Shown here: positions 17,993-57,812 of the stretch, piece after piece
Numbering within the stretch: the first letter of the stretch is position 1
How the letters are laid out: each line of letters begins with the position of its first letter
Source of the DNA: Streptomyces sp. Je 1-369
GTDB lineage: Bacteria > Actinomycetota > Actinomycetes > Streptomycetales > Streptomycetaceae
DNA: 64,000 nt
Direction: 5' to 3'
Assembly: GCF_026810505.1 (NCBI RefSeq)
Contig: NZ_CP101750.1
Coordinates: 4,951,001 to 5,015,000 of the forward strand
Translations under genes and position numbers: made by a program
The notes under the pieces: model-generated
The model's database searches: none
Told to the model about the DNA's origin: nothing
Seen by the model: only the letters and a program-made list of their open reading frames with translations

Positions 17993-20521
<2,529 letters not shown>

Positions 20522-20650: not shown

Positions 20651-23227
20651 TCACGCGGTGATCGTCACGCCCTCCGGTACGTTCCGAACGCGCGGCAGGC
20701 GCGGGTTGACGCGCAGGACGTGCAGGCCGGGGAAGCGGGCCAGCCACGACATGTCCGGGTCGGGCAGCTCCGCGTTGATCCACAGGTGGGTGAGCCGCTC
20801 GGGGACGAGGCCCGAGAGGAGTTCGTCGGTGCGCATGACGCCCGCCACTTGAATCCGGGGCCGCCCGCCGAGACCGCGCAGGGCGGCCAGCTCCGCCGCG
20901 TCGGACACGGGGAAGTACAGGCCCGCCGGGTCGAGGTGGGCGATGATCTCGCGCGCGTACCGCTCGGTGTCGAAGTGCCGCCAGGGGCGGGCCAGCTCGG
21001 TGCGGATGGCGAGGGAGGAGCGGCCGCGCAGCCGGGCCAGGTAGTCGATCGCGGCGTCCTCCTGGACGCGGGTCGCCGTGATGGCCAGGAGCAGCGCCTG
21101 CTGGTCGCCGGGCACCTGCTCGGGGTCCGGTAGCTGCTCCAGGACGATGGGTCCGACCCAGCCGAGGCTGCGGGCACCCTGTTCCGTCGTGGGCCGCAGC
21201 AGGTTCTTCGTGCGCCGGTGGACGAGTTCCTGGACGGCCGGGTCGAGCTCGCTGACGTGTTCCAGGCAGGCCGCGGCCATCAGGCGCCGGTGGTTGACGT
21301 GCGGCCTGCGCAGACCCGGGGCGGCGGCGAGCAGACGTTCCAGGAAGGCGGCGCACTCGTCAGGGCGGGCGTGGGCGGCGGACATGCGGATGACCTCCTC
21401 CCACTCCGGCTGGTGGGCGTGATCGACGAGGGTGTTGAGGCGGCCGCGGGCCACGATCTCCTTGGCGGCCAGATAGTCCTGGAACGTGCGGTGGATGAAG
21501 TCGACGGAGACGCCCGCCTGCTCGCGCAGCAGCCCGGTGCGGTGCAGCAGATGCCGGAAGATCTTCTCGCCGTCGCCCGCGGCACGGGCCGAGGGAATGG
21601 CGGGCAGGGCACCGTTCAGGACGTCGATGACGCGGGGGCGCGGCAGCTCCGAGAGACCCTCGTCGAGCATGGCGTGGGCGAGCTTGCGCAGAAGCAGCTC
21701 GCGGGCACCCTGCTGGAGCCGTACGTCATCGGCGTACAGCACGTCCCTTTCGGGGTCACGGCGCTGGAGCAGCATCTCCAGGGCGGCGTCGTAGAGCTCC
21801 TTGCGGCCCTTGGGCAGGGAACCGGAGCGGTCCCGGTTGAGAGCGCATATGAGGCCGCACATCAGCGGGTTGGTGGCGAGGCGGCGCAGCTCGCGGTAGA
21901 TCCGTACGGAGTGCAGCAGGCGCTGCTCGTACTCCTTGAGGGCGTCCCGGTCCCGCTGCTCCCCGCACTGCTCGTCGCCCATCGCGGCGGTGTGCCAGTC
22001 GCGGATGAAGTGGGTGACCTGGTCGCGGGACATGGGGGCGAGCGACAGCTCGGTGAACCCTTCCTCGGCGAGGCGCTCCTGCGAGAGCCAGCCGTCCTCG
22101 ACGGCGGAGGGCCGCGAGGTGACCAGGCAGGCGGTGCCGGAGAAGATGCGCAGGAGCCGGCGGAGCCGGTCGCGCAGGGCGCCGCGGCTCTCCTCGGGCG
22201 CCTCGTCGATCCCGTCGACCAGGAGCAGGGCACGGCCCGCGAGGAGGGTCCGTACGACCCATCCTTCGGGCGCCCGGTCGGCCAACGGGTGGCGGATGGC
22301 GTGCAGGAAGTCATCGGGCGCGGGAAAGCCTTCCCTGGCGAAGCGGCGTACGGGAAGGACGAACGGCACGCGGGTGCCGTTCCGGGCCGTGTCCACGGCC
22401 AGCCACTGCACGAGCGTCGTCTTCCCGGAGCCCGCGACACCGCGCAGCAGCACGCGCTCGTGCCCTTCCAGGGCGCGGTCGGCGAGGAGCACGGTGCGCT
22501 GGTGCCCGCCGGGGGCGGAGGCGGGTCCGTCGCTGCTCTCCTCCGCCTGGAGGCTGAGGTAGGTGTCCTCCAGGGGCCACCGATCGGGAGCGTTGGCGAG
22601 GTCGACGCCCACGATGGTCAGCCAGCCGTGCTGCCGTACGACTTCTTGCGCGTACGCGACTTCGAACTCGGCGTCTTCGCGGGATGGTTCGTTCCGTCGG
22701 GCGGCGGCCGCCACCTCGGCGTCGTTGAGGTCGACGAGCTGACGGACGCGGCTGGCGCGCTCGGGCATGTGGCGCTGGATGTACGGGGAGCGGCGCACGA
22801 AGTGGTGCAGCACGTGCAGACAGACGGCGACGAGCAGCTCGTCGTGGAACCAGGCGGCGTCGGGGCTCAGCCCGCGGTCCGCGCCCTGCACGGCGCCGCG
22901 CAGCCGCCGCGCATAGTCCTGCGGGCCGAGGCGCACGGCGTCGGCGTCGGTGAGGTCGAGTTCGCCGATGGCGAGGAGGGTGCGGGTCAGTACGTCGGCG
23001 ACGGCGGGGAGCTCGCCGGTGGGCGCGCTGTGCCGCTCCGCGGCGAGCTGGATGAAGTCGGCGGCGGTGCGGTGGACGTGGTCCGGGTCGGCGGGGGCGT
23101 CGGGGCCGCGCCAGGTGGTGAGGGCGGCGATCAGGTCGGGGGTGGTGGGGGGTCGGGAGGGGGCGCGGAAGAACCGTTGTACGAGGGGCATGGTGCGGGC
23201 CGAGGGGGTGCGTACTACGGGCTCCAT
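20651..23227 (-). CDS. NACHT-domain STAND NTPase 1
   Basis: An 858-residue protein: divergent N-terminal helical region (1-245) with LHVLHHFVRRSPYIQ and WPLEDTYLSLQAE motifs shared with its two paralogues; NACHT core with Walker A GVAGSGKTTLVQWL (~261), Walker B LLLVDGIDEAPEE (~343) and sensor LVTSRPSA; the NPLMCGLICALNRDR and FIHRTFQDYLAAKEIV signatures of the helical lid; then a C-terminal leucine-rich region. All catalytic motifs look intact. Bacterial NACHT proteins include anti-phage sensors that oligomerise on detecting infection. TATCCT lies 8 nt before the ATG at 23227, so the transcript is probably leaderless. The N-terminal ~40 residues differ from the other two, which may mean a different effector end. 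Trigger and output are unknown. Confidence 0.85.
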   Translation of the reverse strand: MEPVVRTPSARTMPLVQRFFRAPSRPPTTPDLIAALTTWRGPDAPADPDHVHRTAADFIQLAAERHSAPTGELPAVADVLTRTLLAIGELDLTDADAVRLGPQDYARRLRGAVQGADRGLSPDAAWFHDELLVAVCLHVLHHFVRRSPYIQRHMPERASRVRQLVDLNDAEVAAAARRNEPSREDAEFEVAYAQEVVRQHGWLTIVGVDLANAPDRWPLEDTYLSLQAEESSDGPASAPGGHQRTVLLADRALEGHERVLLRGVAGSGKTTLVQWLAVDTARNGTRVPFVLPVRRFAREGFPAPDDFLHAIRHPLADRAPEGWVVRTLLAGRALLLVDGIDEAPEESRGALRDRLRRLLRIFSGTACLVTSRPSAVEDGWLSQERLAEEGFTELSLAPMSRDQVTHFIRDWHTAAMGDEQCGEQRDRDALKEYEQRLLHSVRIYRELRRLATNPLMCGLICALNRDRSGSLPKGRKELYDAALEMLLQRRDPERDVLYADDVRLQQGARELLLRKLAHAMLDEGLSELPRPRVIDVLNGALPAIPSARAAGDGEKIFRHLLHRTGLLREQAGVSVDFIHRTFQDYLAAKEIVARGRLNTLVDHAHQPEWEEVIRMSAAHARPDECAAFLERLLAAAPGLRRPHVNHRRLMAAACLEHVSELDPAVQELVHRRTKNLLRPTTEQGARSLGWVGPIVLEQLPDPEQVPGDQQALLLAITATRVQEDAAIDYLARLRGRSSLAIRTELARPWRHFDTERYAREIIAHLDPAGLYFPVSDAAELAALRGLGGRPRIQVAGVMRTDELLSGLVPERLTHLWINAELPDPDMSWLARFPGLHVLRVNPRLPRVRNVPEGVTITA

Positions 23228-23235
23228 GGGCACAA

Positions 23236-23241
23236 AGGATA
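23236..23241 (-). promoter_or_regulatory. Candidate -10 of NACHT 1 (leaderless)
   Basis: Minus-strand TATCCT, 8 nt before the ATG at 23227, within the 16-bp gap after NACHT 2. The start context CCCATGG is shared with the other two NACHT genes. No clear -35 hexamer at 17-18 bp. Confidence 0.45.
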
Positions 23242-23243
23242 GG

Positions 23244-25796
23244 TCAAGTGCCTTGCGCCGGGCGGGCGTTGAGGCGTACGCCGGACGGGAGCTGCCGGGC
23301 GGTGTCCGCGTCCACCTCCGTGCCCACGTCCACGTCGGTGAGGCGCGGGAAGGCCGAGAGCCAGGCGAGCCCCTCGACGGGGTGGGGTGCGTCCAGCGAG
23401 AGCCGGGTGAGCTGCTCGGGCACGATGAGTTCCACGAGGTCCTCCACGCGGTAGGCGCCGATGACCTTGATGTTCGGCCAGCCTCCGATGGAGCGCAGGG
23501 CGCGGAGGTCCGCGGCGCCGTGCACGGGAACCAAGGGCCGTCGGGACAGGTGGGCGAGGATCTCCGACACGTAGGGCTCGCGGTCGAAGATCGTCCAGGA
23601 CGCGGTGAGGACCAGCTGGACGTGGCGGTCGGGATGGTCGCGGAAGCGTGTCAGGAAGTGCAGCGCCGGGTCACTGCCGATCTTGGCGGCCACCAAGGGC
23701 ACCAGGTGGGCGAGCTCGCCCTCGACGTCGTCGGGTCCGGGCAGCAGGTGGAGCACCAGATCGCCGCCCGCCTCCGCCAGGGCGTACGCCTCGCGCTCCG
23801 TTCGCGGCGGAATCAGCGACCGTACCCCCTCCTCCACACCCTGCCGCACGACCGGCGCCAGCTCCGCCGCGTACGCTGCCCCCGCCGCCGCGAGCAGCTT
23901 CCCCCGCGCCGTGCCGCCCGCCACCAGCCGCTGAAGCATCCGTTCCGCCTCCTTGGGCCGCGCGTGGGCGACCGCCAGCAGGATGACGTCCTCCCACTCG
24001 GTGCGGTCCGCGTTGTTCAGGAGCAGGTCGAAGTCCAGCTCCTGTACGGCGAGACGGGCGCCCAGGTAGTCCTGGAAGGTGCGGTGCAGGAAGTCCACGC
24101 GCCCGACGGCCGGCTCCCGCAGCAGGCCCGAGCGCAGGAGGAGCCAGTGGTACACCTCCTCGCCGCTGCCGTCGATGTTCATCGCGGGCGCGGCACCCCC
24201 GAGGATGCTCACGGCATCCGTTTCGTCCATCTCCGAGCGGCTGTTGCGGATCAGCCACCAGGCGAGCTTCTGGAGGAGCTGCACCTGGGTGGCGAACGGC
24301 AGCCGTATGACCATGACGTCCCGCTCGACGTCCCTGCGCTCAAGCAGCATCGTCAGAGCGGCCTCGTACAGGGACTTCCTGTCCTGCGGCAGGAAGCCGC
24401 GCCGCTCGCGGTGGAGCGCGCAGAGCATGCCGCACATCAGCGGGTTGGTGGCGAGTCGGTTCAGTTCGGAGGCGGCCCGCACGGTCTCCAGGAGAGCGGT
24501 CCCGATGCCGTCGTCCGCGCCCGCAGCACGGTGCCAGCGCCGCACGAACGTCTCGACGTCGTCGCGGGTCATCGGCGACAGCGTGAGCTCGGCGAAGCCG
24601 GTGGTGTCCAGCCAGCGGTCCGGGACGGCGGAGGGGCGGGTCGTGACGAGCCAGAGGTTGCCGGGGAAGGTACGCGTCAGGTCGCGCAGCCAGCGCTTGG
24701 CGGACTCGCGCCGGTCCTCGGAGATCTCGTCGAGCCCGTCGACGAGGAGCACGCCGCGCCCCGCCCGCAGCACGCGGTTCACCCACCCGGGCGGCTCCTC
24801 CCCGGCGACGAGGCACCCGACGGCGGTCAGGAAGTCGTACGGCGCGGGGAGTTCGGTGCCCGGCCGTACGATCCGCCGCATCGGCAGCACGAACGGCACC
24901 CGCCCGATGAGGTGGGTCAGCCCGTGCTCGTACGTCCGGTCGGCCGCCGTCACGGCGAGCCACTGGACCAGCGTCGTCTTGCCGGACCCGGCGACTCCGC
25001 GCAGCAGCACGTGGTCGTGCTGGGCGAGGACCTGCTCGGCGGCGACCTGGGCCGCGCCCTCGCCCAGGCGGTCCCTGGTCGCCTCCAGGCTGAGGTAGGC
25101 CGTGTCGAGGGGCCACTCGCTGGTGCCCGCGTAGACGTCGAGGCCGTAGATGGTGAGGGTGCCGTGGTGCGAGGTGATGTACGACGCGTACCGCGCCTCG
25201 AACGCGGCGTCCTCTGCTGACTGCGACGGCAGCCGATCGAGGAGTACGTCGACGGCCTTGACGAGCTGCGCGAGCTGGCGGCTCTGTTGCGTCTGCTGGC
25301 GGGCGATGTACGTCGACCGCTGCGTGAAGAAGTTCAGGATGTGCAGCGACGCGGTGTGCAGCAGCCGGTCGAGGAACAGCTCGGCGTCGCTGCTGAACGT
25401 GAACGTCGCGACGGTCACGGCCGACTGCGAGCGGAGGGTCCGCGCGAACTCGTCGGGGCCGAGCGCGACGGCTTCGTAGTCCTCGATGGTGAGGGTGCCG
25501 AGGGCGGCGAGGGAGAGGGCGAGGGCGGTCCGCACCGCGACGGCTTCCCCGGCGTCCACGGGGGCCTCGCCGGGTCCGGCCGCTCGCAGCGCCCTGCGGA
25601 CGAGCTCGTCCGCGATCTTCTCGACGTCCTTCGGGGTGACGTCCCGCTTCTCGCCCCTGAACGAGACGAGCCCGGAGATCCGTACCGGCTTGGTGACCAG
25701 CGCGGCGCCGGGCTGGTCCTTCACGAAGAGCTTCTTCACGAGGGGCGCGACCGCGCTGGACGCGAGTCGGGCGCCTAGGGCTCCGGGGTCGACCAT
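23244..25796 (-). CDS. NACHT-domain STAND NTPase 2
   Basis: An 850-residue paralogue of the flanking NACHT genes. Residues 1-55 (MVDPGALGARLASSAV, KKLFVKDQPGA, SGLVSFRGEKR) are nearly the same as NACHT 3. Then come the shared helical motif LHILNFFTQRSTYIA (151-165), YGLDVYAGTSEWPLDTAYLSLEA (217-239), Walker A GVAGSGKTT (267-275), Walker B VLLVDGLDEISED (~348), WLVTTRPSA, NPLMCGMLCALHRER and FLHRTFQDYLGARLAV. The last ~90 residues form a short leucine-rich segment that differs from those of the paralogues, as expected for a ligand-sensing end. TACCCT lies 6 nt before the ATG; an upstream in-frame start at 25814 is less likely. Probably a defence or stress sensor by family. Confidence 0.87.
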   Translation of the reverse strand: MVDPGALGARLASSAVAPLVKKLFVKDQPGAALVTKPVRISGLVSFRGEKRDVTPKDVEKIADELVRRALRAAGPGEAPVDAGEAVAVRTALALSLAALGTLTIEDYEAVALGPDEFARTLRSQSAVTVATFTFSSDAELFLDRLLHTASLHILNFFTQRSTYIARQQTQQSRQLAQLVKAVDVLLDRLPSQSAEDAAFEARYASYITSHHGTLTIYGLDVYAGTSEWPLDTAYLSLEATRDRLGEGAAQVAAEQVLAQHDHVLLRGVAGSGKTTLVQWLAVTAADRTYEHGLTHLIGRVPFVLPMRRIVRPGTELPAPYDFLTAVGCLVAGEEPPGWVNRVLRAGRGVLLVDGLDEISEDRRESAKRWLRDLTRTFPGNLWLVTTRPSAVPDRWLDTTGFAELTLSPMTRDDVETFVRRWHRAAGADDGIGTALLETVRAASELNRLATNPLMCGMLCALHRERRGFLPQDRKSLYEAALTMLLERRDVERDVMVIRLPFATQVQLLQKLAWWLIRNSRSEMDETDAVSILGGAAPAMNIDGSGEEVYHWLLLRSGLLREPAVGRVDFLHRTFQDYLGARLAVQELDFDLLLNNADRTEWEDVILLAVAHARPKEAERMLQRLVAGGTARGKLLAAAGAAYAAELAPVVRQGVEEGVRSLIPPRTEREAYALAEAGGDLVLHLLPGPDDVEGELAHLVPLVAAKIGSDPALHFLTRFRDHPDRHVQLVLTASWTIFDREPYVSEILAHLSRRPLVPVHGAADLRALRSIGGWPNIKVIGAYRVEDLVELIVPEQLTRLSLDAPHPVEGLAWLSAFPRLTDVDVGTEVDADTARQLPSGVRLNARPAQGT

Positions 25797-25802
25797 GGGT
25801 CG

Positions 25803-25808
25803 AGGGTA
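25803..25808 (-). promoter_or_regulatory. Candidate -10 of NACHT 2 (leaderless)
   Basis: Minus-strand TACCCT, 6 nt before the ATG at 25796, in the same CCCATGG start context as NACHT 1 and 3. The two palindromes at 25898-25916 and 25976-25998 lie 90-190 bp upstream. Confidence 0.5.
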
Positions 25809-25897
25809 GGGCAACGGCGGTTACACGTAGGGTAGTTAGGGCGTGCCGGGGCCGTCTCGGGTTGCCCCCTGCCGGGTGATGCGGCCCCACGCCGATT

Positions 25898-25916
25898 GTG
25901 CAACAGGCCGTTGCAC
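25898..25916. repeat. Palindrome A upstream of NACHT 2
   Basis: Exact arms GTGCAAC (25898-25904) and GTTGCAC (25910-25916) around AGGCC. It ends at the stop codon of the longer DUF397 gene and resembles palindrome B (both have CAACAGGC-GTTG). Could be an operator for the adjacent XRE/DUF397 system or the stem of a terminator. Confidence 0.7.
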
Positions 25917-26230
25917 TATCGGCGCCGGTGTGGGTGCGGGAAGCCGTGCCGGATGGCCGCGGGTGGCTCGGTGAATTGTCCAACAGGCTGTTGGACAAAC
26001 TGCGTTGCAGCTCGCTGAGAGGGCTCCTGGCGGTCGATTCGCCCGGTGCGCCTTCCCTGCGAGTGTGTGTCTATGAGAGCGGCAAACGCTGCGGGATGGG
26101 TGGTGAGGGTTGTGTCGGGGGCGTCGCTCTCTTGGAGGTAGATGCGGCCGGTGGGGTGTGCGGCCACGTAGACGCAGTTGGCGCCTCCCCCCTCGCTGAA
26201 CGTGGACTTCTGCCAGTTGAGAGTGCTCAT
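25916..26230 (-). CDS. DUF397 protein with long C-terminal tail
   Basis: The first ~53 residues are a DUF397 domain (LNWQKSTFSEGGGANCVYVAAHPTGRIYLQESDAPDTTLTTHPAAFAALID is the family pattern). DUF397 proteins act with XRE-DUF5753 regulators such as WhiJ. This copy has about 50 extra residues, hydrophilic and Arg/Gln/Pro-rich, so it is nearly twice the usual length; the tail reads through palindrome B and may be the product of a lost stop codon. It overlaps the other DUF397 gene by 4 nt (ATGA). Confidence 0.75.
   Translation of the reverse strand: MSTLNWQKSTFSEGGGANCVYVAAHPTGRIYLQESDAPDTTLTTHPAAFAALIDTHSQGRRTGRIDRQEPSQRAATQFVQQPVGQFTEPPAAIRHGFPHPHRRR
25976..25998. repeat. Palindrome B (perfect 11-bp arms)
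   Basis: TTGTCCAACAG (25976-25986) and CTGTTGGACAA (25988-25998) pair exactly around one base. It lies inside the tail region of the longer DUF397 gene, 78 bp from palindrome A. Perfect symmetry with a single central base suits a dimeric DNA-binding protein; with no T-run, termination is a weaker option. Confidence 0.75.
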
Positions 26231-26445
26231 TCTGGGGCTCCCTGGAGGGGGCGAGAAGTAGTCGTGCGGGTGGAGAGGGTTCGTATGAGAGCGGCGAACG
26301 CAGCGGGGTGGGTGGTGAGAGTTGTGGTGGGGGCGTCGCTCTCCCGAAGGTGGACTGTTTCGGCGTTGTGGCTCGCCGCGACGTAGAGGCAATTGACGCC
26401 TGCCCCGTCGCTGAAAGAAGACTTCTGCCAGACGAGTTCGTGCAC
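26227..26445 (-). CDS. DUF397 protein
   Basis: A 72-residue DUF397 protein: HELVWQKSSFSDGAGVNCLYVA, then VHLRESDAPTTTLTTHPAAFAALI. It sits 9 nt after the XRE-DUF5753 gene and overlaps the second DUF397 gene by 4 nt, giving the usual XRE-DUF397 order, here with a tandem DUF397 duplication. In characterised cases (WhiJ, BldB-related systems) such small partners modulate the DNA-binding protein during development or antibiotic production. Confidence 0.88.
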   Translation of the reverse strand: MHELVWQKSSFSDGAGVNCLYVAASHNAETVHLRESDAPTTTLTTHPAAFAALIRTLSTRTTTSRPLQGAPE

Positions 26446-26454
26446 GGCGCTTCC

Positions 26455-27342
26455 CTAATGCGTGTAGAGGACATGGTGAATCAGGCCCCATGAGTCCCGT
26501 TGCTCGTGGCTACCCGGTGGCCCCTCGGCCGTCACCGGCGAGAGGGCGTTTCGCCTGAGCGAGTCGAACGTGCTCTTGTAACGGGTGATGGATTCGGCGT
26601 CGCCCAGCAGGAGAGGAGCGGCCGGGTGATCCAACAGCACTGTTTCCAACCCCGCTACGTCTGAGTCAAGGATCAAAAGCGGCGTGCCGAACCAGGCGCG
26701 GGCGCCGGAGTCGAAGGGCAGGATCTGGATGGTCGTGCCAGGGCGCTGTGCGGCGCGTACGAGGTGAGCGAGTTGGCCCCGCATAACTTCTGGGCTACCC
26801 ACAGTGATGCGCAGGGCAGCCTCGTGGATGACGGCGTGGAGCGCCGTGGTGTAGTCACCCGAGAGGACCTGTTGGCGGGCGCGGCGGAAGTCGACCAGTG
26901 CCTCGATCTCCGCGGGGGAGGCGCCCGGTCGCGAGCTGTAGAAGAGGGCCCTCATGTAGGCCTCGGTCTGGAGCAGACCCGGGATGAGGAGCGTTTCGTA
27001 GCTCTGGACGCCAGCAGCGCGCGACTCCAACTCGGCCAAGTCGAGGCTGTGTTGCGACAGGGACTTACGGAACTCCGTCCACCACCCCTTGCCGTCGCTC
27101 TCAGCCATCCTGGTCAGTGTGGCGATGTAGGGCTCAGATCTGACGTCATAGGCGTACAGGAGTGCGACAAGGCGGTCCGCCGAGACGGCCGTCCGGGCTG
27201 CCTCGATGTGACTGAGGTGGGCGGCACCCAGGCCGATCCGGCTACTGGCCGCATTGACCGACAGCCCTGCGGCTTCGCGAAGTTTGCGGAGCTCAGAGCC
27301 GAGCCGTCTCTGCCGTTCGGTGATGTGTGTGCGCAGGGCCAT
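26455..27342 (-). CDS. XRE-family regulator with DUF5753 domain (WhiJ-like)
   Basis: A 295-residue protein with an N-terminal helix-turn-helix (LRKLREAAGLSVNAASSRIGLGAAHLSHIEAARTAVSADRL, residues ~17-60) and a C-terminal DUF5753 domain (YETLLIPGLLQTEAYMRALF, then ILPFDSGARAWFGTPLLIL). This is the WhiJ type, which usually represses a neighbouring DUF397 gene and developmental targets. The ATG at 27342 is chosen since it precedes the conserved THITERQRRLG start; the ORF extends far upstream without similarity. It is divergent from the RsbW-like ATPase gene. Confidence 0.92.
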   Translation of the reverse strand: MALRTHITERQRRLGSELRKLREAAGLSVNAASSRIGLGAAHLSHIEAARTAVSADRLVALLYAYDVRSEPYIATLTRMAESDGKGWWTEFRKSLSQHSLDLAELESRAAGVQSYETLLIPGLLQTEAYMRALFYSSRPGASPAEIEALVDFRRARQQVLSGDYTTALHAVIHEAALRITVGSPEVMRGQLAHLVRAAQRPGTTIQILPFDSGARAWFGTPLLILDSDVAGLETVLLDHPAAPLLLGDAESITRYKSTFDSLRRNALSPVTAEGPPGSHEQRDSWGLIHHVLYTH

Positions 27343-27657
27343 GCGGGTTCTCCCGGTGGTTGGCCCACAGTTTGCCGCTATTGATCGGGCAAGGTCCAGC
27401 AATCCGCGCAAGACGGTTGCAGATCTGAGCCGGTATTCGCTACCTTGAGTGTGGCGACGCTCACACACTGTTGTCGGAAGCCTCGCTGTCGACGCATTCC
27501 CCCCACCCTGCCCGCCCACAGAAGCGCACCGCCCGATCCAACACCCCGTGCCGGACGGGGGATTGTTCGCGAGGAGCGGTAGGCCACTGCGGTCGGGCCA
27601 CGTGGGGCCGGTCATTCACCAGTCGAACCAGCGACCCCAACGCCATGGAGGCGTCTC
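27343..27657. promoter_or_regulatory. Divergent intergenic region between XRE regulator and ATPase
   Basis: A 315-bp gap that should carry promoters in both directions. I see no perfect palindrome and no clear -35/-10 pair; the stretch 27380-27480 is richer in A+T than the rest. Confidence 0.4.
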
Positions 27658-28053
27658 ATGGGCGTACCCCCGCATGACCTCACGTCGGACACCTACACCC
27701 TGTTCACCCCCGGCAACGCCCACTCCGCCAAGATCTGCCGCGACTTCGTACAGCGCACCCTGGAAACCCTCGGCCTCGGCCACCTCGGGGACACCGCCGC
27801 TCTCTGCACCTCCGAGCTGGTGACCAACGTGCACCAGCACACGAAGAGCGACGTCCACCTGAGAGCCGCCGTCGCCACCACCCACGTACGCATCGCCGTG
27901 TACGACGGCGGCGACCAACTGCCCGCTCCCCGCAGGCCCGATGCGGAAGAGGAAGGCGGGCGGGGGCTCTTCCTCGTGACCGCACTGTCCGACGTGTGCG
28001 GGGTGACGCCCGCGAGTACGGGCAAAGGAGTGTGGTTTCAGCTCAATCGGTGA
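27658..28053 (+). CDS. RsbW-like ATP-binding protein (HATPase_c_2)
   Basis: A 131-residue stand-alone GHKL ATPase: LCTSELVTNVHQHTKSD (N box), VYDGG (G1) and GGRGLFLVTALSDVCGV (G2). Proteins of this size in Streptomyces are anti-sigma-like kinases or their relatives and regularly sit beside XRE-DUF5753/DUF397 pairs (abaA/whiJ-type loci). No anti-anti-sigma or sigma gene is next to it, so its partner is unknown; the DUF397 proteins are possible partners. Its last 11 nt overlap the convergent NACHT 3 gene. Confidence 0.88.
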   Translation: MGVPPHDLTSDTYTLFTPGNAHSAKICRDFVQRTLETLGLGHLGDTAALCTSELVTNVHQHTKSDVHLRAAVATTHVRIAVYDGGDQLPAPRRPDAEEEGGRGLFLVTALSDVCGVTPASTGKGVWFQLNR

Positions 28054-31000
28054 GTGGGCCGTAGACGTGTACGTCGATGTGGGCGGGCAAGGTGTCCAGG
28101 CCGGTGGCCACGGCGTGGACCGTCAGCTCCGTCAGGCTCGGATGGCAGGCCAGCGCGGAGACGTCGATGGGGGCGTGCTGGTCCCGGCTGCTGACCGGGC
28201 GATTGTATACGTAGAGGTGCCTGAGCCCCGGCGCGACCGTGCCGAGCCGGGAGGTCATGGCTGCCCAGGACGCGTCCGGAGAGAGCTGTAGGAGTGCCAG
28301 GCCGGGCAGGGCAAGTCCCGGCGGGACGGCCGTGAAGGCGTGCGACGGCAGGTGTAGCACGGTCAGGCCGGGAAGCGCCGCGAGCACCTCCCAGTCCGCG
28401 GCGGACAGCGGATCGTCGTCGCCGAAGGCCACTCGCTCCAGCGTCGGCCACCGGGTCGCGAGGTGCAGATCGGTCAGGGAGTCCCGGGAGTCCACGAGGT
28501 TGAGGAACGTCAAGGGCGCCTCGGCGGGGAACGGCGAAAGACTCCACGGCTCCTGCATGCCGACGAGGCTGAGTCCGTCGAGGTGGCCGAGGGCGTTCAG
28601 TGCCTCGGCCGTCAGCAAGGTCGGCGGGAACCTGTTGAGCATCAGGAAGGTGGGCTCGCAGGCCGCGATGAAGCGGGAGGCCACGGCGGGGGTGACGCCC
28701 GGCCTGATGTCCAGCTTCCGAGGGCGCAGGCCCAGCCGTTCGAGCTCGACGATCTGATCGTCGGTGCGGAGAGTGAAGTGGATGTCCTCGGCGTCGTCGA
28801 ACCGGGCGATGATCTGGTCGGCATACGCACGGCAGTCGTACCGGTACCACCCCCACATCAACTGGCTGCGGACCCCGAGACCCCGGTGCCGGGCGAACCG
28901 GGCGAGGAAGGGGATCGCCGCGTCCGAGTCCACGCGCGTCGCGGTGATGGCCACCAGCACGGCCTCGTCGTCGGACAGGCCGTCCGGTCCGGGCAGCAGG
29001 TCGAGCACCATCGCGCCGACCTTCGCCAGTGTCTGCGCGCTCGCCACGTCGTGCGGAGGAATCAGCGCCGACGTCCGCCGCTCCACCTCGGCCCGCACCG
29101 TCGGCGCCAGCTCCGCCGCGTGTTCCAGGCAGGCCGCGGCCAGGAGATGGACACGCTTGCGGGCCCCCTCCTCCGGAAGCCCGTCCCCGTACGAAAGCAA
29201 GTCACCCAGCAGTTCGGCCCGTTCGCGCGGCCGCGCCTGCGCCACGGCCATGCGGATGACGTCCTCCCACTGGTCGTCCGCCGCGTGCCGGGCGAGTACG
29301 CCGAAGTCGCCCTCGTCGACCGCCGCCCGCGCCCCCAGGAAGTCCTGGAAGGTGCGGTGGACGAAGTCGACGGTGCCCGGACCCGGCTCGCGCAGGAGGC
29401 CGCTGCGGTGCAGGAAGTGGGTGTAGACCGCGTGGGCGTCGCCGAGCGGCGCCAGTTCCGGGACCGCGGGGAGAGCGTCCGCGATGATGGACTCGGCGCG
29501 CGAACGGTCCATCACCGTACGGCCGTTGCGGATCAGCCAGTACGCGAGGCGTTGCAGGAGCTGGAGCTGTGGCTCCTCCCGCAACTCCGGGACCGTCATG
29601 TGGCGTTCACGGTCCCGGCGGACCAGGAGCATGGAGAGGGCAGCCGTGTAGAGGTCCTTGCGGCCCATCGGCAGGAAACCGCGCCGGTCGCGGTGGAGGG
29701 CGCAGATCAGGCCGCACATGAGCGGGTTGGTGGCGAGGAGGCCGAGGTCCGGCTTGGAGCGCACGGCTGCGAGGAGCTGACTCTCGTACGCGACGAGTTC
29801 GGCGTCCTCCTCCGGGACCCCCGTGGCCGCTGCGGTGTGCCAGCGCTCGATGAACGCCGTCACTTCGTCCTGCCCCATCGCGGAGAGCGTCAGCTCGGTG
29901 AACCCCTCCTCGGTGAGCCAGTCCTCGCGTACGGCCGACGGGCGGGACGTCACCAGCCAGCGGTTGCCCGGGAACGCGTCGATGAGGTCGCTCAGCCAGG
30001 CCCGGGTGCGGTCGCGCTCGGCGTCCGGGATCTCGTCGATGCCGTCGATCAGGACGAGGGCGCGCCCGGCCGTCAGAACGCGCGCTTCCCACCCCTGGGG
30101 CTGGGTGCCCGCGAGCGGACAGCCGACGGCGGCCAGGAAGTCGGCGGGGGCGGGCAGGCGCTCGCCGTGGCGGGTGAGGGTGCGCAGGGGGAGTACGTAG
30201 GGGACGTGGTCGGTCAGATAGGCCATGGACGGATGCGTCGCGGACGGGTCCGGTCCCGCCACGTCCCGGCGCGTCGCGCTCACCGCGAGCCACTGCGCCA
30301 ACGTGGTCTTGCCCGAGCCCGCCTCACCCCGCAGGAGGACCCGGTCATGGGTAGCGAGGGCCTGGTCCGCCGGGAGTGGCGGCGCGTGCTCGGTGATCTC
30401 CACCATCTCCACGCGATGCTCCGCTTCGAAAGGGCGGTCGTCCCCTCCGACGAAGCGGTACTCCTCTTCAGTCAGGTGGCGAAACCTCCGCACATGCCCG
30501 GGCCCCACCGCCTCCAGCGACATATACGCCGCGTCCAGCGGCCACCTCCCCGGCGAGCCCGTCAGATCGATGCCGAAGATCGTCAGCTTGGAGTGCTTCT
30601 TCGCCACGTACGCGAGGTAGCGCCGCTCGAAGGTGACGTCCTGCGACCCGGCGGTCGGCCTGCGGGCGATCAGCTCGTCGACCTTCGCGATCAGCTCGTC
30701 CTGGCCCCGGCTCTGCGCGACCAGCGTCGCCGCGACGAACGTGGAGCGTTGCGTGAAGAACTGGAGGATGTGCAGGCACGCCCACTCGGTGACCGAGTCG
30801 AGGTAGAGGGCGGCGTCGGCGGAGAGGCCGGCCGCCGACGCGCCGCCGATCAGGGTGCGGGCCAGCTCACGGTGGCCGAGCCGGACCGCCTGCACGTCGT
30901 CCATGTCGAGGTCGCCGAGCGAGAGGAGCGCCCGGGCCAGGGCGTCGGTGACCGCTTCGGCCTCGTCCGGCGGGAAGGTGCGCTCGCCGGGGGAGGCGAG

Positions 31001-31204
31001 GGAGGCCGCCACGAGCCGCTCCGCGAGGCGGCGCACGTCCCGGCGGCCCAGCGTGCGCTGCTCACCCCTGAACGACACCAGGGACGAGAGCCTGACCGGC
31101 TTCTCCACCAGGCCCGCGCCGGGGCCCTCCCGTACGAACAGCCGCTTGACCAGGGAGGCGACTGCACTCGACGCCAGGCGGGTGCCGATGACCGCGGGAT
31201 CCAT
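28043..31204 (-). CDS. NACHT-domain STAND NTPase 3 with extended leucine-rich C-terminus
   Basis: The largest paralogue, 1053 residues. Its N-terminus (MDPAVIGTRLASSAVASLVK, RLFVREGPGAGL, SLVSFRGEQR) almost matches NACHT 2; then LHILQFFTQRSTFVA, WPLDAAYMSLEAV, Walker A GEAGSGKTTLAQWLAV (~291), Walker B LVLIDGIDEIPDA, WLVTSRPSA, NPLMCGLICALHRDR and FVHRTFQDFLGARAAV. Between the shared N-domain and Walker A it has a ~45-residue insert (FRHLTEEEYRFVGGDDRP). The final ~280 residues are leucine-rich repeat-like (LPGLTVLHLPSHAF and similar), about 200 longer than in the others. This resembles a eukaryotic NLR plan: N-terminal effector/adaptor, NACHT, LRR-like sensor. Start chosen by TACGCT 7 nt before the ATG. 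Confidence 0.87.
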   Translation of the reverse strand: MDPAVIGTRLASSAVASLVKRLFVREGPGAGLVEKPVRLSSLVSFRGEQRTLGRRDVRRLAERLVAASLASPGERTFPPDEAEAVTDALARALLSLGDLDMDDVQAVRLGHRELARTLIGGASAAGLSADAALYLDSVTEWACLHILQFFTQRSTFVAATLVAQSRGQDELIAKVDELIARRPTAGSQDVTFERRYLAYVAKKHSKLTIFGIDLTGSPGRWPLDAAYMSLEAVGPGHVRRFRHLTEEEYRFVGGDDRPFEAEHRVEMVEITEHAPPLPADQALATHDRVLLRGEAGSGKTTLAQWLAVSATRRDVAGPDPSATHPSMAYLTDHVPYVLPLRTLTRHGERLPAPADFLAAVGCPLAGTQPQGWEARVLTAGRALVLIDGIDEIPDAERDRTRAWLSDLIDAFPGNRWLVTSRPSAVREDWLTEEGFTELTLSAMGQDEVTAFIERWHTAAATGVPEEDAELVAYESQLLAAVRSKPDLGLLATNPLMCGLICALHRDRRGFLPMGRKDLYTAALSMLLVRRDRERHMTVPELREEPQLQLLQRLAYWLIRNGRTVMDRSRAESIIADALPAVPELAPLGDAHAVYTHFLHRSGLLREPGPGTVDFVHRTFQDFLGARAAVDEGDFGVLARHAADDQWEDVIRMAVAQARPRERAELLGDLLSYGDGLPEEGARKRVHLLAAACLEHAAELAPTVRAEVERRTSALIPPHDVASAQTLAKVGAMVLDLLPGPDGLSDDEAVLVAITATRVDSDAAIPFLARFARHRGLGVRSQLMWGWYRYDCRAYADQIIARFDDAEDIHFTLRTDDQIVELERLGLRPRKLDIRPGVTPAVASRFIAACEPTFLMLNRFPPTLLTAEALNALGHLDGLSLVGMQEPWSLSPFPAEAPLTFLNLVDSRDSLTDLHLATRWPTLERVAFGDDDPLSAADWEVLAALPGLTVLHLPSHAFTAVPPGLALPGLALLQLSPDASWAAMTSRLGTVAPGLRHLYVYNRPVSSRDQHAPIDVSALACHPSLTELTVHAVATGLDTLPAHIDVHVYGPLTD

Positions 31205-31211
31205 GGGCGTG

Positions 31212-31217
31212 AGCGTA
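31212..31217 (-). promoter_or_regulatory. Candidate -10 of NACHT 3 (leaderless)
   Basis: Minus-strand TACGCT, 7 nt before the ATG at 31204, with the same CCCATGG start context as the other two NACHT genes. Confidence 0.5.
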
Positions 31218-31264
31218 GTGCGGGTCACATTCGCGGCGGGGTGGATCTCGGGGGCCGGTGACAT

Positions 31265-31727
31265 GCCGCACAGGCGATTTGAGTGGTACTAGGCGGAATA
31301 GTGGATATGGCGGGTCCCCTGCCCGGGACCTTCGGCCCGCAACCTCCGGGACCTTGGACGCGTCCGGGCCCCGCAGGCGGGGCTCTGGTGTAGGTGGGGG
31401 TGCGGAGCGGCTCCGACGTGCGGGTAAACGCAGCGAGCCGGACGAAGCTCCGTTACCGGACTGCGGGGAAATTGTCCGGATTTGGGGGTGTCAAGCGGTC
31501 TAAATCCCTGCGCCTCGCTACGGCTTTGGGTAGTAGATGGGCGTTTTGGGTCCCGGGCGGGGTGGGGGTTACCAAGGGATGGCCGACCCGGCGAAGCGTG
31601 GTCAGCGGGCGATCCGCCCGCCCCGCCTGCCGGGTCCGTTCATGCCCCCCTCGGTCGTACGCGTCAGGCGTCGCCGCAGTCGTCACGCAGTCGTCATCGC
31701 AGTCGTCACACCCCGGAGGACATCCCC
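31265..31727 (+). other. Gene-free region and likely 5' leader of the M23 peptidase
   Basis: No convincing ORF. It is G-rich with several possible stems (for instance around GTCCCCTGCCCGGGAC, 31316-31331) and three direct copies of GCAGTCGTCA at 31676-31708 just before the CGGAGGACA ribosome site. I searched for ydaO (c-di-AMP) riboswitch signatures and did not find them. Confidence 0.5.
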
Positions 31728-32384
31728 ATGTCGAAGCGCACCCAGTCCCACCGTCCCGGCCCGTCGTTCTTCCGTACCCGCGTGGCCTTCATCGCCGCGG
31801 GCATCGGAGTGTCGACGGCCCTCGGCGCGGGGGTCTCGGTCGCCGCCGGTGACACGAAGAGCGGTGGCGCGCTGCCCGGCGTCGCCTCGAACTCCGTCCA
31901 GAAGCAGGCCGCCGCCCAGGCGAAGAAGGCCGCCGACGTCAAGAAGGCCGCCGCCGCGAAGGCTGCCGCATGGGTCGACCCGGTCAAGAACTACACGCTC
32001 TCCGCGACCTTCGGCCTCGGCGGCACCATGTGGTCCCACAAGCACTCCGGCCAGGACTTCGCCGTGCCGGTCGGCACCTCGGTCGGGGCCGTGCACGGCG
32101 GCACCGTCGTCAAGGCCGGGCCGAACGGCGCCGGTGACGGCCCCGCGTACGGCAACGCCGTCGTGATCAAGCACGACAACGGCACGTACTCCCAGTACGC
32201 GCACCTCTCGCAGGTCGACGTCCGGGTGGGCCAGGCCGTGGGCACCGGCCAGCGCATCGCCCTCTCCGGCAACACCGGCAACTCCAGTGGTCCGCACCTG
32301 CACTTCGAGATCCGTACGGCCCCGAACTACGGCACGGCCGTGGACCCGGTCAAGTTCCTCGCGTCGGTGGGCGTGAAGGTCTGA
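31728..32384 (+). CDS. Secreted M23 (LytM-type) metallopeptidase
   Basis: A 218-residue exported protein: signal segment (residues ~18-40, VAFIAAGIGVSTALGAGVSVAA), an Ala/Lys-rich linker, and an M23 domain with the zinc ligands in HSGQDFAV and GPHLHFEI. Such enzymes cut peptide bridges in peptidoglycan. The ATG at 31728 has GGAGGAC upstream. An endopeptidase acting on the wall fits the nearby sigE-cse envelope-stress operon, though no SigE promoter was identified. Confidence 0.93.
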   Translation: MSKRTQSHRPGPSFFRTRVAFIAAGIGVSTALGAGVSVAAGDTKSGGALPGVASNSVQKQAAAQAKKAADVKKAAAAKAAAWVDPVKNYTLSATFGLGGTMWSHKHSGQDFAVPVGTSVGAVHGGTVVKAGPNGAGDGPAYGNAVVIKHDNGTYSQYAHLSQVDVRVGQAVGTGQRIALSGNTGNSSGPHLHFEIRTAPNYGTAVDPVKFLASVGVKV

Positions 32385-55413: not shown

Positions 55414-57666
55414 TCAGCCGGACTTCGGCGGCTTCGTCGCGTCGAAGGCGAACACCGTGTTCTTGGCGGCCGCCACGACCACCACGCCGCCCTTGACGCT
55501 CACGCGCGGGCTGGCGCCCACCTCGCCCGCGAGACCGTCGGCCCGCGGGTTCGTGGCCCAGCGCTGCTCGCCCTTGCGGGACGTGAGCGCGGCGACGCGC
55601 CCGCTGGCCGAGCTGAAGTACAGCATCCCGTCGCCGTCCCCGGACACCGGTCCGGACAGCCCCTCCACACCCGTCTGCCGGGACCACTTCTTCCTGCCGG
55701 TCGCCGGGTCGAGCGCCGTGACGAGCCCGGTCTGCCCGGTCACGAAGACGGTGCCGTCCGCCATCCCGGGCGTCCCGTCGTACGTCTTCGGCAGCCGCGT
55801 GTACGTGGCCTCGTGGGAGTCCCGGGCGACCCGCGTCACCCCGTCGTAGCCCACCAGCGCGGGCCCTTCACGCCGCTCGTGCAGGAGTACGAGGCTGTCG
55901 CCCGCGGTGCCGACCGGCACGGCGGGCCCCCGGACGGCGACGGGCTCGCCGAGGCTCCCCGACGCGAGGTCGACGACGCGCAGGTCGGGGTGGCGCACCT
56001 CGCTCGCGGCCAGTTCGGCGCGCGGCGCGCACATCGCGTACAGGCGCGTGCCCGCCGTGACCGGGGCGCACTGCTTGCCCGCGGGGAACGGCTGCTTCCA
56101 GGCGACCTTCCCGCTGTGCGCCCGCCGCGCCTCGAAGCGGCTGTTGGACGCGTCGATCGTCACGACGGTCGAGTTGACGACCACGGCGTCCTGCGTACGG
56201 TTCGTGACGGCCGTCGACTGGGCGCCGGACGGCACGGACCACAGCTCCTTGCCCTTGTCCGCGTCGATGGCGACCACTTCGGTGGCGGGGTTGACCGGGT
56301 CGTCCTCGGCGGCGAGGCGGTAGCCGAGCACCGTGTCGTCGGTGACGCCCACCATGTGCATGCCCTGTGTGGGCACGCCGGGGCTCTTCTCCGTCCAGAC
56401 GCGGGACCCGTCGGACAGCCTGAGCCGCGCGGCGACGACACCGCCGCCCCCGCAGAACAACGCGTCCCCGCGTGCCTCGCAGCGCAGCTCGTCCGGGATG
56501 TCGGCGCGGCCGCCCGGCACGGTCTTGCGCCACGGCTCGAACCCGCCGGGGAGCCGCGCCCCGGCGGCCGCGATGTCCCGCCCCCGGTCTCCGGCGTCGG
56601 CGCCGGACCCGCCCGAGTCGCCCGCCCGCATCATCGCGACCCCGCCACCGATCGCGGCCACGGCCACGGCGGCGGCGAGCGCGGGACGCCAACGGCGGCG
56701 CAGCCGGCGCCCGAGGAGGGTCCCGGTCTCGGTGGAGCGCGGGGAAGCCGTAGCTGCGGGAGCGGGCGCCGGAGTGTCGTCGTCCGCCGCGAGGTGGTGC
56801 TGCGTGTCGGTCTCATGGGTGCAGCGCGGGCCCGCGGCAGGCCCCGTCGTACCGCCGAGATCGGACGGCAGGTCCCGCAGCCGTACGAGAAGTTCGTCCG
56901 CGGAGGGCCGGTCGTCAGGGTCCTTCGCGAGACACGGCTCGACCACGCGCCGCAGCGCGCCCGGCACGGCACCCAACGAGGGCGGCTCGTGCACGACTTG
57001 ATACGCCGTCATGTAGGGGCTGTCCGCGTCGAAGGGCCCCTGCCCGGTCGCCGCGTACACCAGCAGCGTGGCCAGCGAGAAGACGTCGGAGCGGGGCCCG
57101 ACGCCGCGCGGCGTCTGCAACTGCTCGGGCGACATGAACGGCGGCGTGCCGATCACCCGGCCCGTCATCGTCAGCGTCTGCTGGTCCGCGGCGCGCGAGA
57201 TGCCGAAGTCGATGACCCGGGGGCCCTCGGGGGAGAGGACCACGTTGGACGGCTTGAGGTCCCGGTGCACGACACCGGCGCGGTGGATGTCGCGCAGCGC
57301 CTCGGTGAGCCCGATGGCCAGCCTGCGCAGGTCGGCACCGCCGATCGGGCCGTGCTCGGCGATGCGCTGGGCGAGGGTGGGGCCCTCGATGAACGTGGTC
57401 GCCATCCACGGGTGCGCGGCCTCGGGGTCGGCGTCGATCACGGCGGCGGTGAACGCGCCACTGACCCGGCGGGCCGCGGCGACCTCCTGCCGGAACCGGA
57501 TCCGGAACTCGTCGTCGTCCGCGAACTGCTGGTGGATCAGCTTGATGGCGACGGGACGGCCGGACGCCGAGCGCCCCAGGAAGACCGTGCCCATGCCGCC
57601 CGAACCGAGACGCGACTCGAGCGGGTATCCGCCGATCTCCTCCGGGTCTCCTCCACGGAGCGACAT
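55414..57666 (-). CDS. Ser/Thr protein kinase with PQQ-type beta-propeller sensor
   Basis: A 750-residue PknB-like protein. Kinase domain: GSGGMG (21-26), catalytic-pocket K42, HRDLKPSN with D136, DFGISRA (~155) and GTPPFMSPEQ. After a Pro/Ala/Asp linker comes one membrane helix (~325-345) and an outer ~370-residue region with PQQ-like propeller repeats (GKELWSVPSG, GRKKWSRQTG, KGEQRWATNP). This places a ligand- or wall-sensing propeller outside and the kinase inside. GTG 57672 is an alternative start two codons upstream. Confidence 0.94.
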   Translation of the reverse strand: MSLRGGDPEEIGGYPLESRLGSGGMGTVFLGRSASGRPVAIKLIHQQFADDDEFRIRFRQEVAAARRVSGAFTAAVIDADPEAAHPWMATTFIEGPTLAQRIAEHGPIGGADLRRLAIGLTEALRDIHRAGVVHRDLKPSNVVLSPEGPRVIDFGISRAADQQTLTMTGRVIGTPPFMSPEQLQTPRGVGPRSDVFSLATLLVYAATGQGPFDADSPYMTAYQVVHEPPSLGAVPGALRRVVEPCLAKDPDDRPSADELLVRLRDLPSDLGGTTGPAAGPRCTHETDTQHHLAADDDTPAPAPAATASPRSTETGTLLGRRLRRRWRPALAAAVAVAAIGGGVAMMRAGDSGGSGADAGDRGRDIAAAGARLPGGFEPWRKTVPGGRADIPDELRCEARGDALFCGGGGVVAARLRLSDGSRVWTEKSPGVPTQGMHMVGVTDDTVLGYRLAAEDDPVNPATEVVAIDADKGKELWSVPSGAQSTAVTNRTQDAVVVNSTVVTIDASNSRFEARRAHSGKVAWKQPFPAGKQCAPVTAGTRLYAMCAPRAELAASEVRHPDLRVVDLASGSLGEPVAVRGPAVPVGTAGDSLVLLHERREGPALVGYDGVTRVARDSHEATYTRLPKTYDGTPGMADGTVFVTGQTGLVTALDPATGRKKWSRQTGVEGLSGPVSGDGDGMLYFSSASGRVAALTSRKGEQRWATNPRADGLAGEVGASPRVSVKGGVVVVAAAKNTVFAFDATKPPKSG

Positions 57667-57812
57667 GCTCACCGACCTCCCCCGCGTTCACCGATGCAAC
57701 GTTTCGCTGCCCAAACTAGCGGCCGGGGCGTGCGCTCTGGCAAGGCGGGGGACGAATAGGGCGCGCCTGTACGCGCGCCGGGTCCCGCAGGGCGACAGGC
57801 GATAATCAAAGG

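What the first reader, a model, noticed from the sequence alone, without database searches (positions are those of the whole stretch)
20651..31204. Three paralogous NACHT (NLR-like) NTPases in one locus with diverged C-terminal sensors
Three genes (858, 850 and 1053 residues) share N-terminal motifs (HILxFFTQRSTYIA, WPLDxAYxSLEA), intact Walker A/B, NPLMCG and HRTFQDYLGA signatures, but their leucine-rich C-termini differ in length and sequence. Bacterial NACHT proteins are known to act in anti-phage defence. Local duplication with variable sensor ends suggests a set of receptors with different triggers and a common output, comparable to NLR families. NACHT 2 and 3 share the first ~55 residues nearly unchanged while NACHT 1 has a different start, hinting at helper/sensor division.
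Basis: partly seen in the sequence, partly recalled or inferred. Interest (0 to 1): 0.9.

Follow-up and report, generated by a model that had tools for sequence, protein, structure and literature searches.

The report
Immune-receptor gene slot beside clpC
Three genes for proteins built like animal NLR immune receptors sit at a chromosomal address where many Streptomyces and related bacteria keep such genes, with more stable signalling parts and sensing ends that often change quickly; their job, probably defence against viruses, is untested.

Summary
Three NNH1-NACHT genes lie on the minus strand between clpC and an M23 peptidase gene, with intact Walker motifs. N3 (1053-1073 aa) models as an NLR (best solved matches NOD2, NLRP3, NLRC4; NNH1 aside) with a C-terminal LRR. 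They are not recent local copies: N1, N2 and N3 fall in separate old lineages with orthologues in other species.

The wider finding is the address. In 60 of 120 clpC-bearing genomes of the genus (and 31 of 67 more), one to three NACHT genes lie just downstream of clpC, all those listed convergent with it, none upstream; 11 of 35 genomes of other genera of the family also have one. Typed occupants carry the helical NNH1 domain or a trypsin-like protease. The neighbours scanned are ordinary genes.

N2 and N1 are adjacent in 12 of 13 readable species with an N1 orthologue. N2's C-terminus evolves fast (62.9% identity, pN/pS 0.64), N1's slowly (85.6%, 0.24), while N1's NNH1 is the divergent one. 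This fits a variable receptor plus a conserved partner; dependence is untested. Anti-phage function is inferred. New variant of a known kind (bacterial NACHT/NLR-related proteins).

The parts
17993..20521 (+). clpC, one landmark of the slot (convergent with the NACHT genes)
20651..23233 (-). N1: NNH1-NACHT, class A (858 or 860 aa), clpC-proximal here; short, conserved C-terminus
22718..23191 (-). N1 NNH1 domain (divergent, 92.6 bits)
21986..22456 (-). N1 NACHT domain
23244..25814 (-). N2: NNH1-NACHT (850 or 856 aa), upstream neighbour of N1, 10 bp apart; fast-evolving C-terminus
25236..25775 (-). N2 NNH1 domain
24525..25013 (-). N2 NACHT domain
25916..26230 (-). small DUF397 protein (104 aa)
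26227..26445 (-). second small DUF397-like protein (72 aa; similarity read by eye, not scanned)
26455..27342 (-). HTH-DUF5753 regulator (295 aa from the ATG; ORF opens at 27615)
28043..31264 (-). N3: NNH1-NACHT-helical-LRR receptor (1053 or 1073 aa), M23-proximal
30665..31186 (-). N3 NNH1 domain (184.2 bits), all-helical model
29831..30343 (-). N3 NACHT domain
28064..28777 (-). N3 LRR-like strand/helix repeats (residues about 830-1067)
31482..32384 (+). M23 peptidase, the other landmark of the slot (divergent from N3; 31731-32384 used as query)

Best explanation
The locus is an occupied copy of a standing NLR slot of the Streptomycetaceae chromosome: the gap between clpC and an M23 gene, which holds zero to three NACHT receptors. 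Each receptor would be held inactive with ADP; a trigger binds the variable C-terminal part (LRR in N3, a shorter C-terminus in N2), the NACHT module takes up ATP and oligomerises, and the N-terminal modules (helical NNH1, or in other species a trypsin-like protease) are brought together and switch on an output that kills or arrests the infected hyphal compartment. N2 and N1, 10 bp apart, are probably made from one operon; N2 is probably the variable sensing member and N1 the conserved partner. SHOWN here: architecture, address, orientation, the two N-terminal types, C-terminal diversification, the recurring N2-N1 gene pair, remnants in some empty slots. INFERRED: nucleotide switch, oligomerisation, operon, trigger (most likely a phage protein), output, N1-N2 co-operation.
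Confidence: 0.66

Rival explanations
1. The NACHT proteins work with ClpC itself: they guard ClpC (reporting phage interference with proteolysis), or ClpC/ClpP controls their level; the fixed neighbourhood is functional linkage.
For: The association with clpC recurs across the family and was convergent in every listed case. A host chaperone, DnaJ, mediates phage sensing by bNACHT25 (PMC12169576, passages).
Against: Half of the genomes with clpC have no listed NACHT there, and 81 of 150 listed hits are not downstream of clpC (some of these are slots split by contig ends or rearrangement). Convergent neighbours are not co-transcribed. Unrelated genes (acid phosphatase, S13 peptidase, esterase, PQQ-repeat proteins) also enter the gap in some species.
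Confidence: 0.1
2. A merely permissive gap: the genes are inherited at a site that tolerates insertions, with no meaning in the position; each protein acts alone.
For: Class A distances track clpC distances (Spearman 0.79, n 12; non-A 0.29, n 40). Slot genes cluster on the tree (12 changes for slot NNH1 against 46 in shuffles). Decay in place. Other genes also occur in the gap.
Against: Does not by itself explain why two NACHT classes with different N-termini both occupy this gap, nor the recurring N2-N1 pair. It is compatible with the receptor function in the best explanation and differs only on position and pairing.
Confidence: 0.5
3. The genes act in development or in recognition of kin hyphae (as fungal NACHT heterokaryon-incompatibility proteins do) rather than against phage.
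For: Among the genomes searched the slot was seen in the mycelial Streptomycetaceae only (13 genomes of other families lacked it within 28 kb); polymorphic presence and variable sensor ends fit allorecognition; HTH-DUF5753 with DUF397 partners is a Streptomyces-type regulator (link to development recalled, not tested).
Against: Close homologues of the regulator lie in only 2 other of 117 loci searched (G241 82%, G384 69%), more distant ones (27-37%) in 6. Characterised bacterial NACHTs act against phage (PMC12169576, passages).
Confidence: 0.12

Closest known systems
Bacterial NACHT / NLR-related anti-phage proteins (bNACHT)
   Same: Central NACHT, N-terminal effector-like module, C-terminal variable module; several members protect against DNA and RNA phages (PMC12169576, passages seen)
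   Different: The members described in those passages carry SNaCT or NCH1 C-termini and PD-(D/E)XK nucleases or no clear effector; here NNH1 or trypsin-like N-termini, an LRR in N3, a fixed address, and tandem pairs. No activity shown.
EruA (NCBIfam NF058535, NACHT antiphage protein)
   Same: Part of the NACHT region matches (35.0 bits N2, 31.1 bits N3)
   Different: Far below the 1000-bit cut-off; not a member
Animal NLRs (NOD2, NLRP3, NLRC4)
   Different: N-terminal domain is NNH1, not CARD/PYD/BIR; sequence identity about 15-20% in these rows
Plant paired and helper/sensor NLRs
   Same: Linked gene pair with one variable and one conserved member (own analysis; plant systems from starts of abstracts in the listing)
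   Different: Bacterial; tandem genes; here the member with the divergent N-terminus is the one with the conserved C-terminus; no functional dependence shown
STAND/trypsin conflict systems of multicellular bacteria
   Same: STAND NTPases linked to trypsin-like effectors, systems enriched in multicellular prokaryotes (PMC7159879 and PMC8195603, passages)
   Different: The passages seen do not describe a clpC-linked locus or NNH1/trypsin exchange at one address; the whole papers were not read

Membership tests
Bacterial NACHT (NLR-related) proteins | NACHT domain over the curated cut-off | tested here: met
   103.3-109.9 bits against 26.7, all three
Bacterial NACHT (NLR-related) proteins | Intact Walker A and Walker B | tested here: met
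   GVAGSGKTT/GEAGSGKTT and DG[IL]DE in all three
Bacterial NACHT (NLR-related) proteins | Tripartite architecture with C-terminal sensor-like region | tested here: met
   N3 model and LRR profile matches; N1 and N2 have a shorter C-terminus and were not modelled
Bacterial NACHT (NLR-related) proteins | Protection against phage | not testable with these tools
   needs a plaque assay
NNH1 (PF22733) | Match over Pfam cut-off | tested here: met
   92.6, 158.9, 184.2 bits against 27
EruA (NF058535) | Whole-protein score of 1000 bits | tested here: not met
   35.0 and 31.1 bits for N2 and N3; N1 not listed
Known PADLOC defence system proteins | Full-length match to a model | tested here: not met
   N1 and N2 only partial matches of 16-21 bits; N3 none at E 0.01
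Animal NLR | NACHT-HD-WHD-HD2-LRR fold | tested here: met
Animal NLR | CARD, PYD or BIR N-terminal domain | tested here: not met
   NNH1 is the only N-terminal Pfam match
Paired sensor/partner NLR | Conserved genetic linkage of two paralogues | tested here: met
   N2 directly upstream of N1 in 12 of 13 species with an N1 orthologue and a readable upstream side; G384 lacks N2 there; G081 and G328 cut by contig ends
Paired sensor/partner NLR | One variable and one conserved member | tested here: met
   C-terminus 62.9% against 85.6% identity; 66 of 66 species pairs
Paired sensor/partner NLR | Degenerate effector end in one member, relieved when alone | tested here: inconclusive
   Mann-Whitney p 0.0006 uncorrected but 2-3 independent contrasts; G485 against it, G262 unclear; N1 NNH1 under purifying selection, pN/pS 0.36
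Paired sensor/partner NLR | Functional dependence of one on the other | not testable with these tools
   needs single and double deletions
Defence island | Other defence genes clustered nearby | tested here: inconclusive
   10 window proteins scanned with Pfam: ordinary functions in 5, the locus's DUF397 in 1, no match in 4; not every gene of the window was scanned and some frames may be wrong

The most novel reading that the evidence does not exclude
Streptomycetaceae keep a chromosomal NLR cluster at a fixed address in which the N-terminal output module can differ (NNH1 or protease), and in which N2 and N1 form a bacterial paired-NLR unit: a fast-evolving sensor and a conserved partner that assemble together, a bacterial counterpart of plant NLR pairs and of NAIP/NLRC4.
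Probability: 0.3. Interest if true: 0.85.

Novelty: new variant of a known kind. Interest (0 to 1): 0.62.

Why it matters
A fixed, family-wide slot with copy-number polymorphism, two alternative N-terminal modules and a linked variable/conserved pair gives a natural experiment on how NLR clusters evolve, in tractable multicellular bacteria. Because the address is known, receptors can be collected from Streptomyces genomes by reading the sequence between clpC and the M23 gene, and the paired-NLR idea becomes directly testable outside plants and animals. No paper describing the slot turned up in the listings (open-access full text only; the founding bNACHT paper, recalled as Kibby et al. 2023, is not held).

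Tried and rejected

Limits of the counts: the hit list is capped and searches used E 1e-100, so occupancy is a lower bound; the tables were typed from the outputs; of the M23 rows I entered 116 and left out most second and weak hits; of 48 empty slots I examined 19; of 151 NACHT ORFs scoring over 250 bits, 147 went into the tree (1 without a Walker A match and 3 short ones dropped); four sequences with incomplete NNH1 (N1 and its G081 orthologue among them) and one partial core were dropped, and N1 and G081 were put back. The class A/non-A comparison pools several clades as non-A; N3's C-terminus was not tested in matched species. G055 and G096 were counted as paired although the second gene now lies elsewhere.
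Full report
OBSERVATION. Three long minus-strand ORFs (20651-23233, 23244-25814, 28043-31264) each carry NNH1 and NACHT well over the Pfam cut-offs. The Walker motifs are intact. The NACHT regions are 57-59% identical in all three pairs, but the NNH1 of N1 is only 32-35% identical to the other two, which share 52%. Between N3 and N2 lie an HTH-DUF5753 regulator and two small DUF397-type proteins, one of them confirmed by Pfam.

THE ADDRESS. The window's genome has five NNH1 matches over the cut-off: these three genes and two elsewhere. I searched 121 genomes of the genus for NACHT relatives, for the M23 gene and for clpC. Of 120 with clpC, 60 have at least one listed NACHT within 30 kb downstream of clpC (the farthest at 7.9 kb), all 69 convergent with clpC, none upstream; 69 of the 150 listed hits are there against about 0.1 expected for random placement in a 12-kb convergent window. 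The M23 orthologue lies within 30 kb downstream of clpC, same strand, in 100 of 120; with NACHT in between in 52 (gap 3.3-11.2 kb), without in 48 (gap 0.5-3.4 kb). The window has the largest gap of that sample. In 67 further genomes of the genus, 31 have it, 40 of 83 listed hits, all convergent, none upstream. In other genera of the family 11 of 35 (one of them, G229, 9-12 kb away). In 13 genomes of other families of the order, none within 28 kb (one at 28.5 kb). In named genomes, of the 79 loci most like N3, chosen by sequence alone from a capped list, 70 are flanked by clpC or the M23 gene in the expected orientation (56 by both), and in none was clpC found in another position within the stretch held.

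WHO LIVES THERE. Of the slot genes of the first sample that entered the tree, 53 are NNH1-NACHT (plus 6 beside an M23 gene that is away from clpC or on another contig) and 16 are trypsin-like-NACHT; the set elsewhere includes 22 with neither. One slot gene (G057) is split, its front piece trypsin-type. Two genomes have one of each side by side, the protease type next to clpC (L051, L100), and two more appear in the second sample (G146, G166). In other genera 9 of the 11 slots hold protease types, one (G210) NNH1, one (G229) two untyped genes. His, Asp and Ser at the triad positions are kept in 40, 41 and 42 of 42 protease-type sequences. Four of 19 empty slots examined hold remnants on the expected strand: two long (G005, G067), two short (G101, pieces of 32-34 residues; G054, 20 residues). 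In G055 and G096 clpC and the M23 gene are 9.8 and 0.8 Mb apart and each has a NACHT neighbour, as an inversion through the slot would leave.

OLD LINEAGES, NOT RECENT COPIES. On a tree of 147 NACHT cores, N1, N2 and N3 join different clades with orthologues in other species. N1 belongs to class A: short, with a divergent NNH1, nearest to clpC in 27 of 36 cases seen; in nine, another NACHT lies on the clpC side. Slot genes cluster on the tree (slot NNH1: 12 changes, shuffles 46). Class A distances follow clpC distances (Spearman 0.79, n 12, 0 of 2000 permutations as high), non-A less so (0.29, n 40, 0 of 2000): inheritance in place with some turnover.

TWO MODES OF EVOLUTION. With tree lengths on a fixed topology relative to NACHT, class A (19 sequences) has NNH1 2.05 and C-terminal parts 0.93-1.09; six random sets of 19 non-A sequences have NNH1 1.17-1.35, C-terminal helical part 1.65-3.15 and LRR tail 3.2-4.2. 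The cleanest test compares N1 and N2 orthologues from the same 12 species (66 pairs): C-terminus identity 85.6% (N1) against 62.9% (N2), pN/pS 0.24 against 0.64, N1 higher in 66 of 66. N1 is also somewhat more conserved in NACHT (87.1 against 83.4%). For NNH1 the result goes against a simple 'decaying N1' idea: 78.6% (N1) against 75.7% (N2), pN/pS 0.36 against 0.43. So N1's NNH1 diverged early and is now constrained. N2's pN/pS stays under 1 in all windows.

A GENE PAIR. N2 ends 10 bp before N1 begins. Fifteen genomes have an N1 orthologue (14 at 78% identity or more in 392 genomes, plus G131); in 13 the upstream side could be read, and in 12 of these N2 lies directly upstream, 3-50 bp away by first possible starts in 11 (in G118 the N1 frame opens inside N2, so its start is uncertain). 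G384 is the exception: its upstream gene is another NNH1-NACHT 3.1 kb away. Among the 52 fully bounded slots of the first sample, two or more NACHTs occur in 5 of 8 slots with class A and 4 of 44 without (Fisher p 0.002, not corrected for descent). Class A copies alone in the slot had higher Pfam NNH1 scores (123-196, n 5) than paired ones (83-133, n 14; p 0.0006 uncorrected), but only 2-3 independent contrasts exist, and G485, whose only listed NACHT is a class A gene with a weak NNH1 on my own model, is a counter-example; G262, with its second gene on another contig, is unclear.

HOW IT PROBABLY WORKS. By analogy with characterised STAND and NACHT proteins (established knowledge, and PMC12169576 passages): the C-terminal part recognises a trigger; ATP-bound NACHT modules form a ring; N-terminal modules are clustered and become active. 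Here that module is NNH1 or, in relatives, a protease, so the likely end is death or arrest of the infected compartment. None of these steps is shown for this family. The N2-N1 pair may form a mixed oligomer; this is the boldest reading the data leave open.

KNOWN AND NEW. The proteins belong to the known bacterial NACHT/NLR-related kind and to Pfam NNH1. New here, as far as nine listings from an open-access library show, are the address shared across the family, the two N-terminal types at one address, and the variable/conserved gene pair. Papers: PMC7159879, PMC8195603, PMC12169576 and PMC10907252 were seen as passages; others only in listings with the start of their abstracts.

Noticed in passing
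window 25916-27342: HTH-DUF5753 regulator with two DUF397-type small proteins between N3 and N2; close homologues sit in two other slots (G241 82%, G384 69%) of 117 loci searched, distant ones in six.
   Followed up: partly
L075/L165 (G055) and L099/L167 (G096): clpC and the M23 gene lie 9.8 and 0.8 Mb apart and each keeps its own NACHT neighbour, as if an inversion had broken inside the slot, perhaps by recombination between paralogues.
   Followed up: partly
L218 (G131), L254-L257 and L259-L262: In nine species the N2-N1 pair lies on the M23 side and a further NNH1-NACHT lies between N1 and clpC, a three-gene order unlike the window's.
   Followed up: partly
G000 (L127 and L128): The window's genome has two further NNH1 genes outside the slot, at 5.246 Mb and 6.25 Mb.
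   Followed up: partly
L051, L052, L055, L102: A HAD acid-phosphatase-like gene recurs in the slot in four species; S13 carboxypeptidase genes in two (L064, L097).
   Followed up: no
G199:C1:9153-11258 and 8153486-8155591: Two identical-scoring NACHT hits near opposite ends of one chromosome, on opposite strands, as terminal inverted repeats would give.
   Followed up: no
window 55414-57672: A protein kinase domain followed by PQQ-type beta-propeller repeats in one ORF.
   Followed up: no
P0038 (Streptomyces sp. S.PB5): One NNH1-NACHT relative also carries a precomputed protein-kinase domain match.
   Followed up: no
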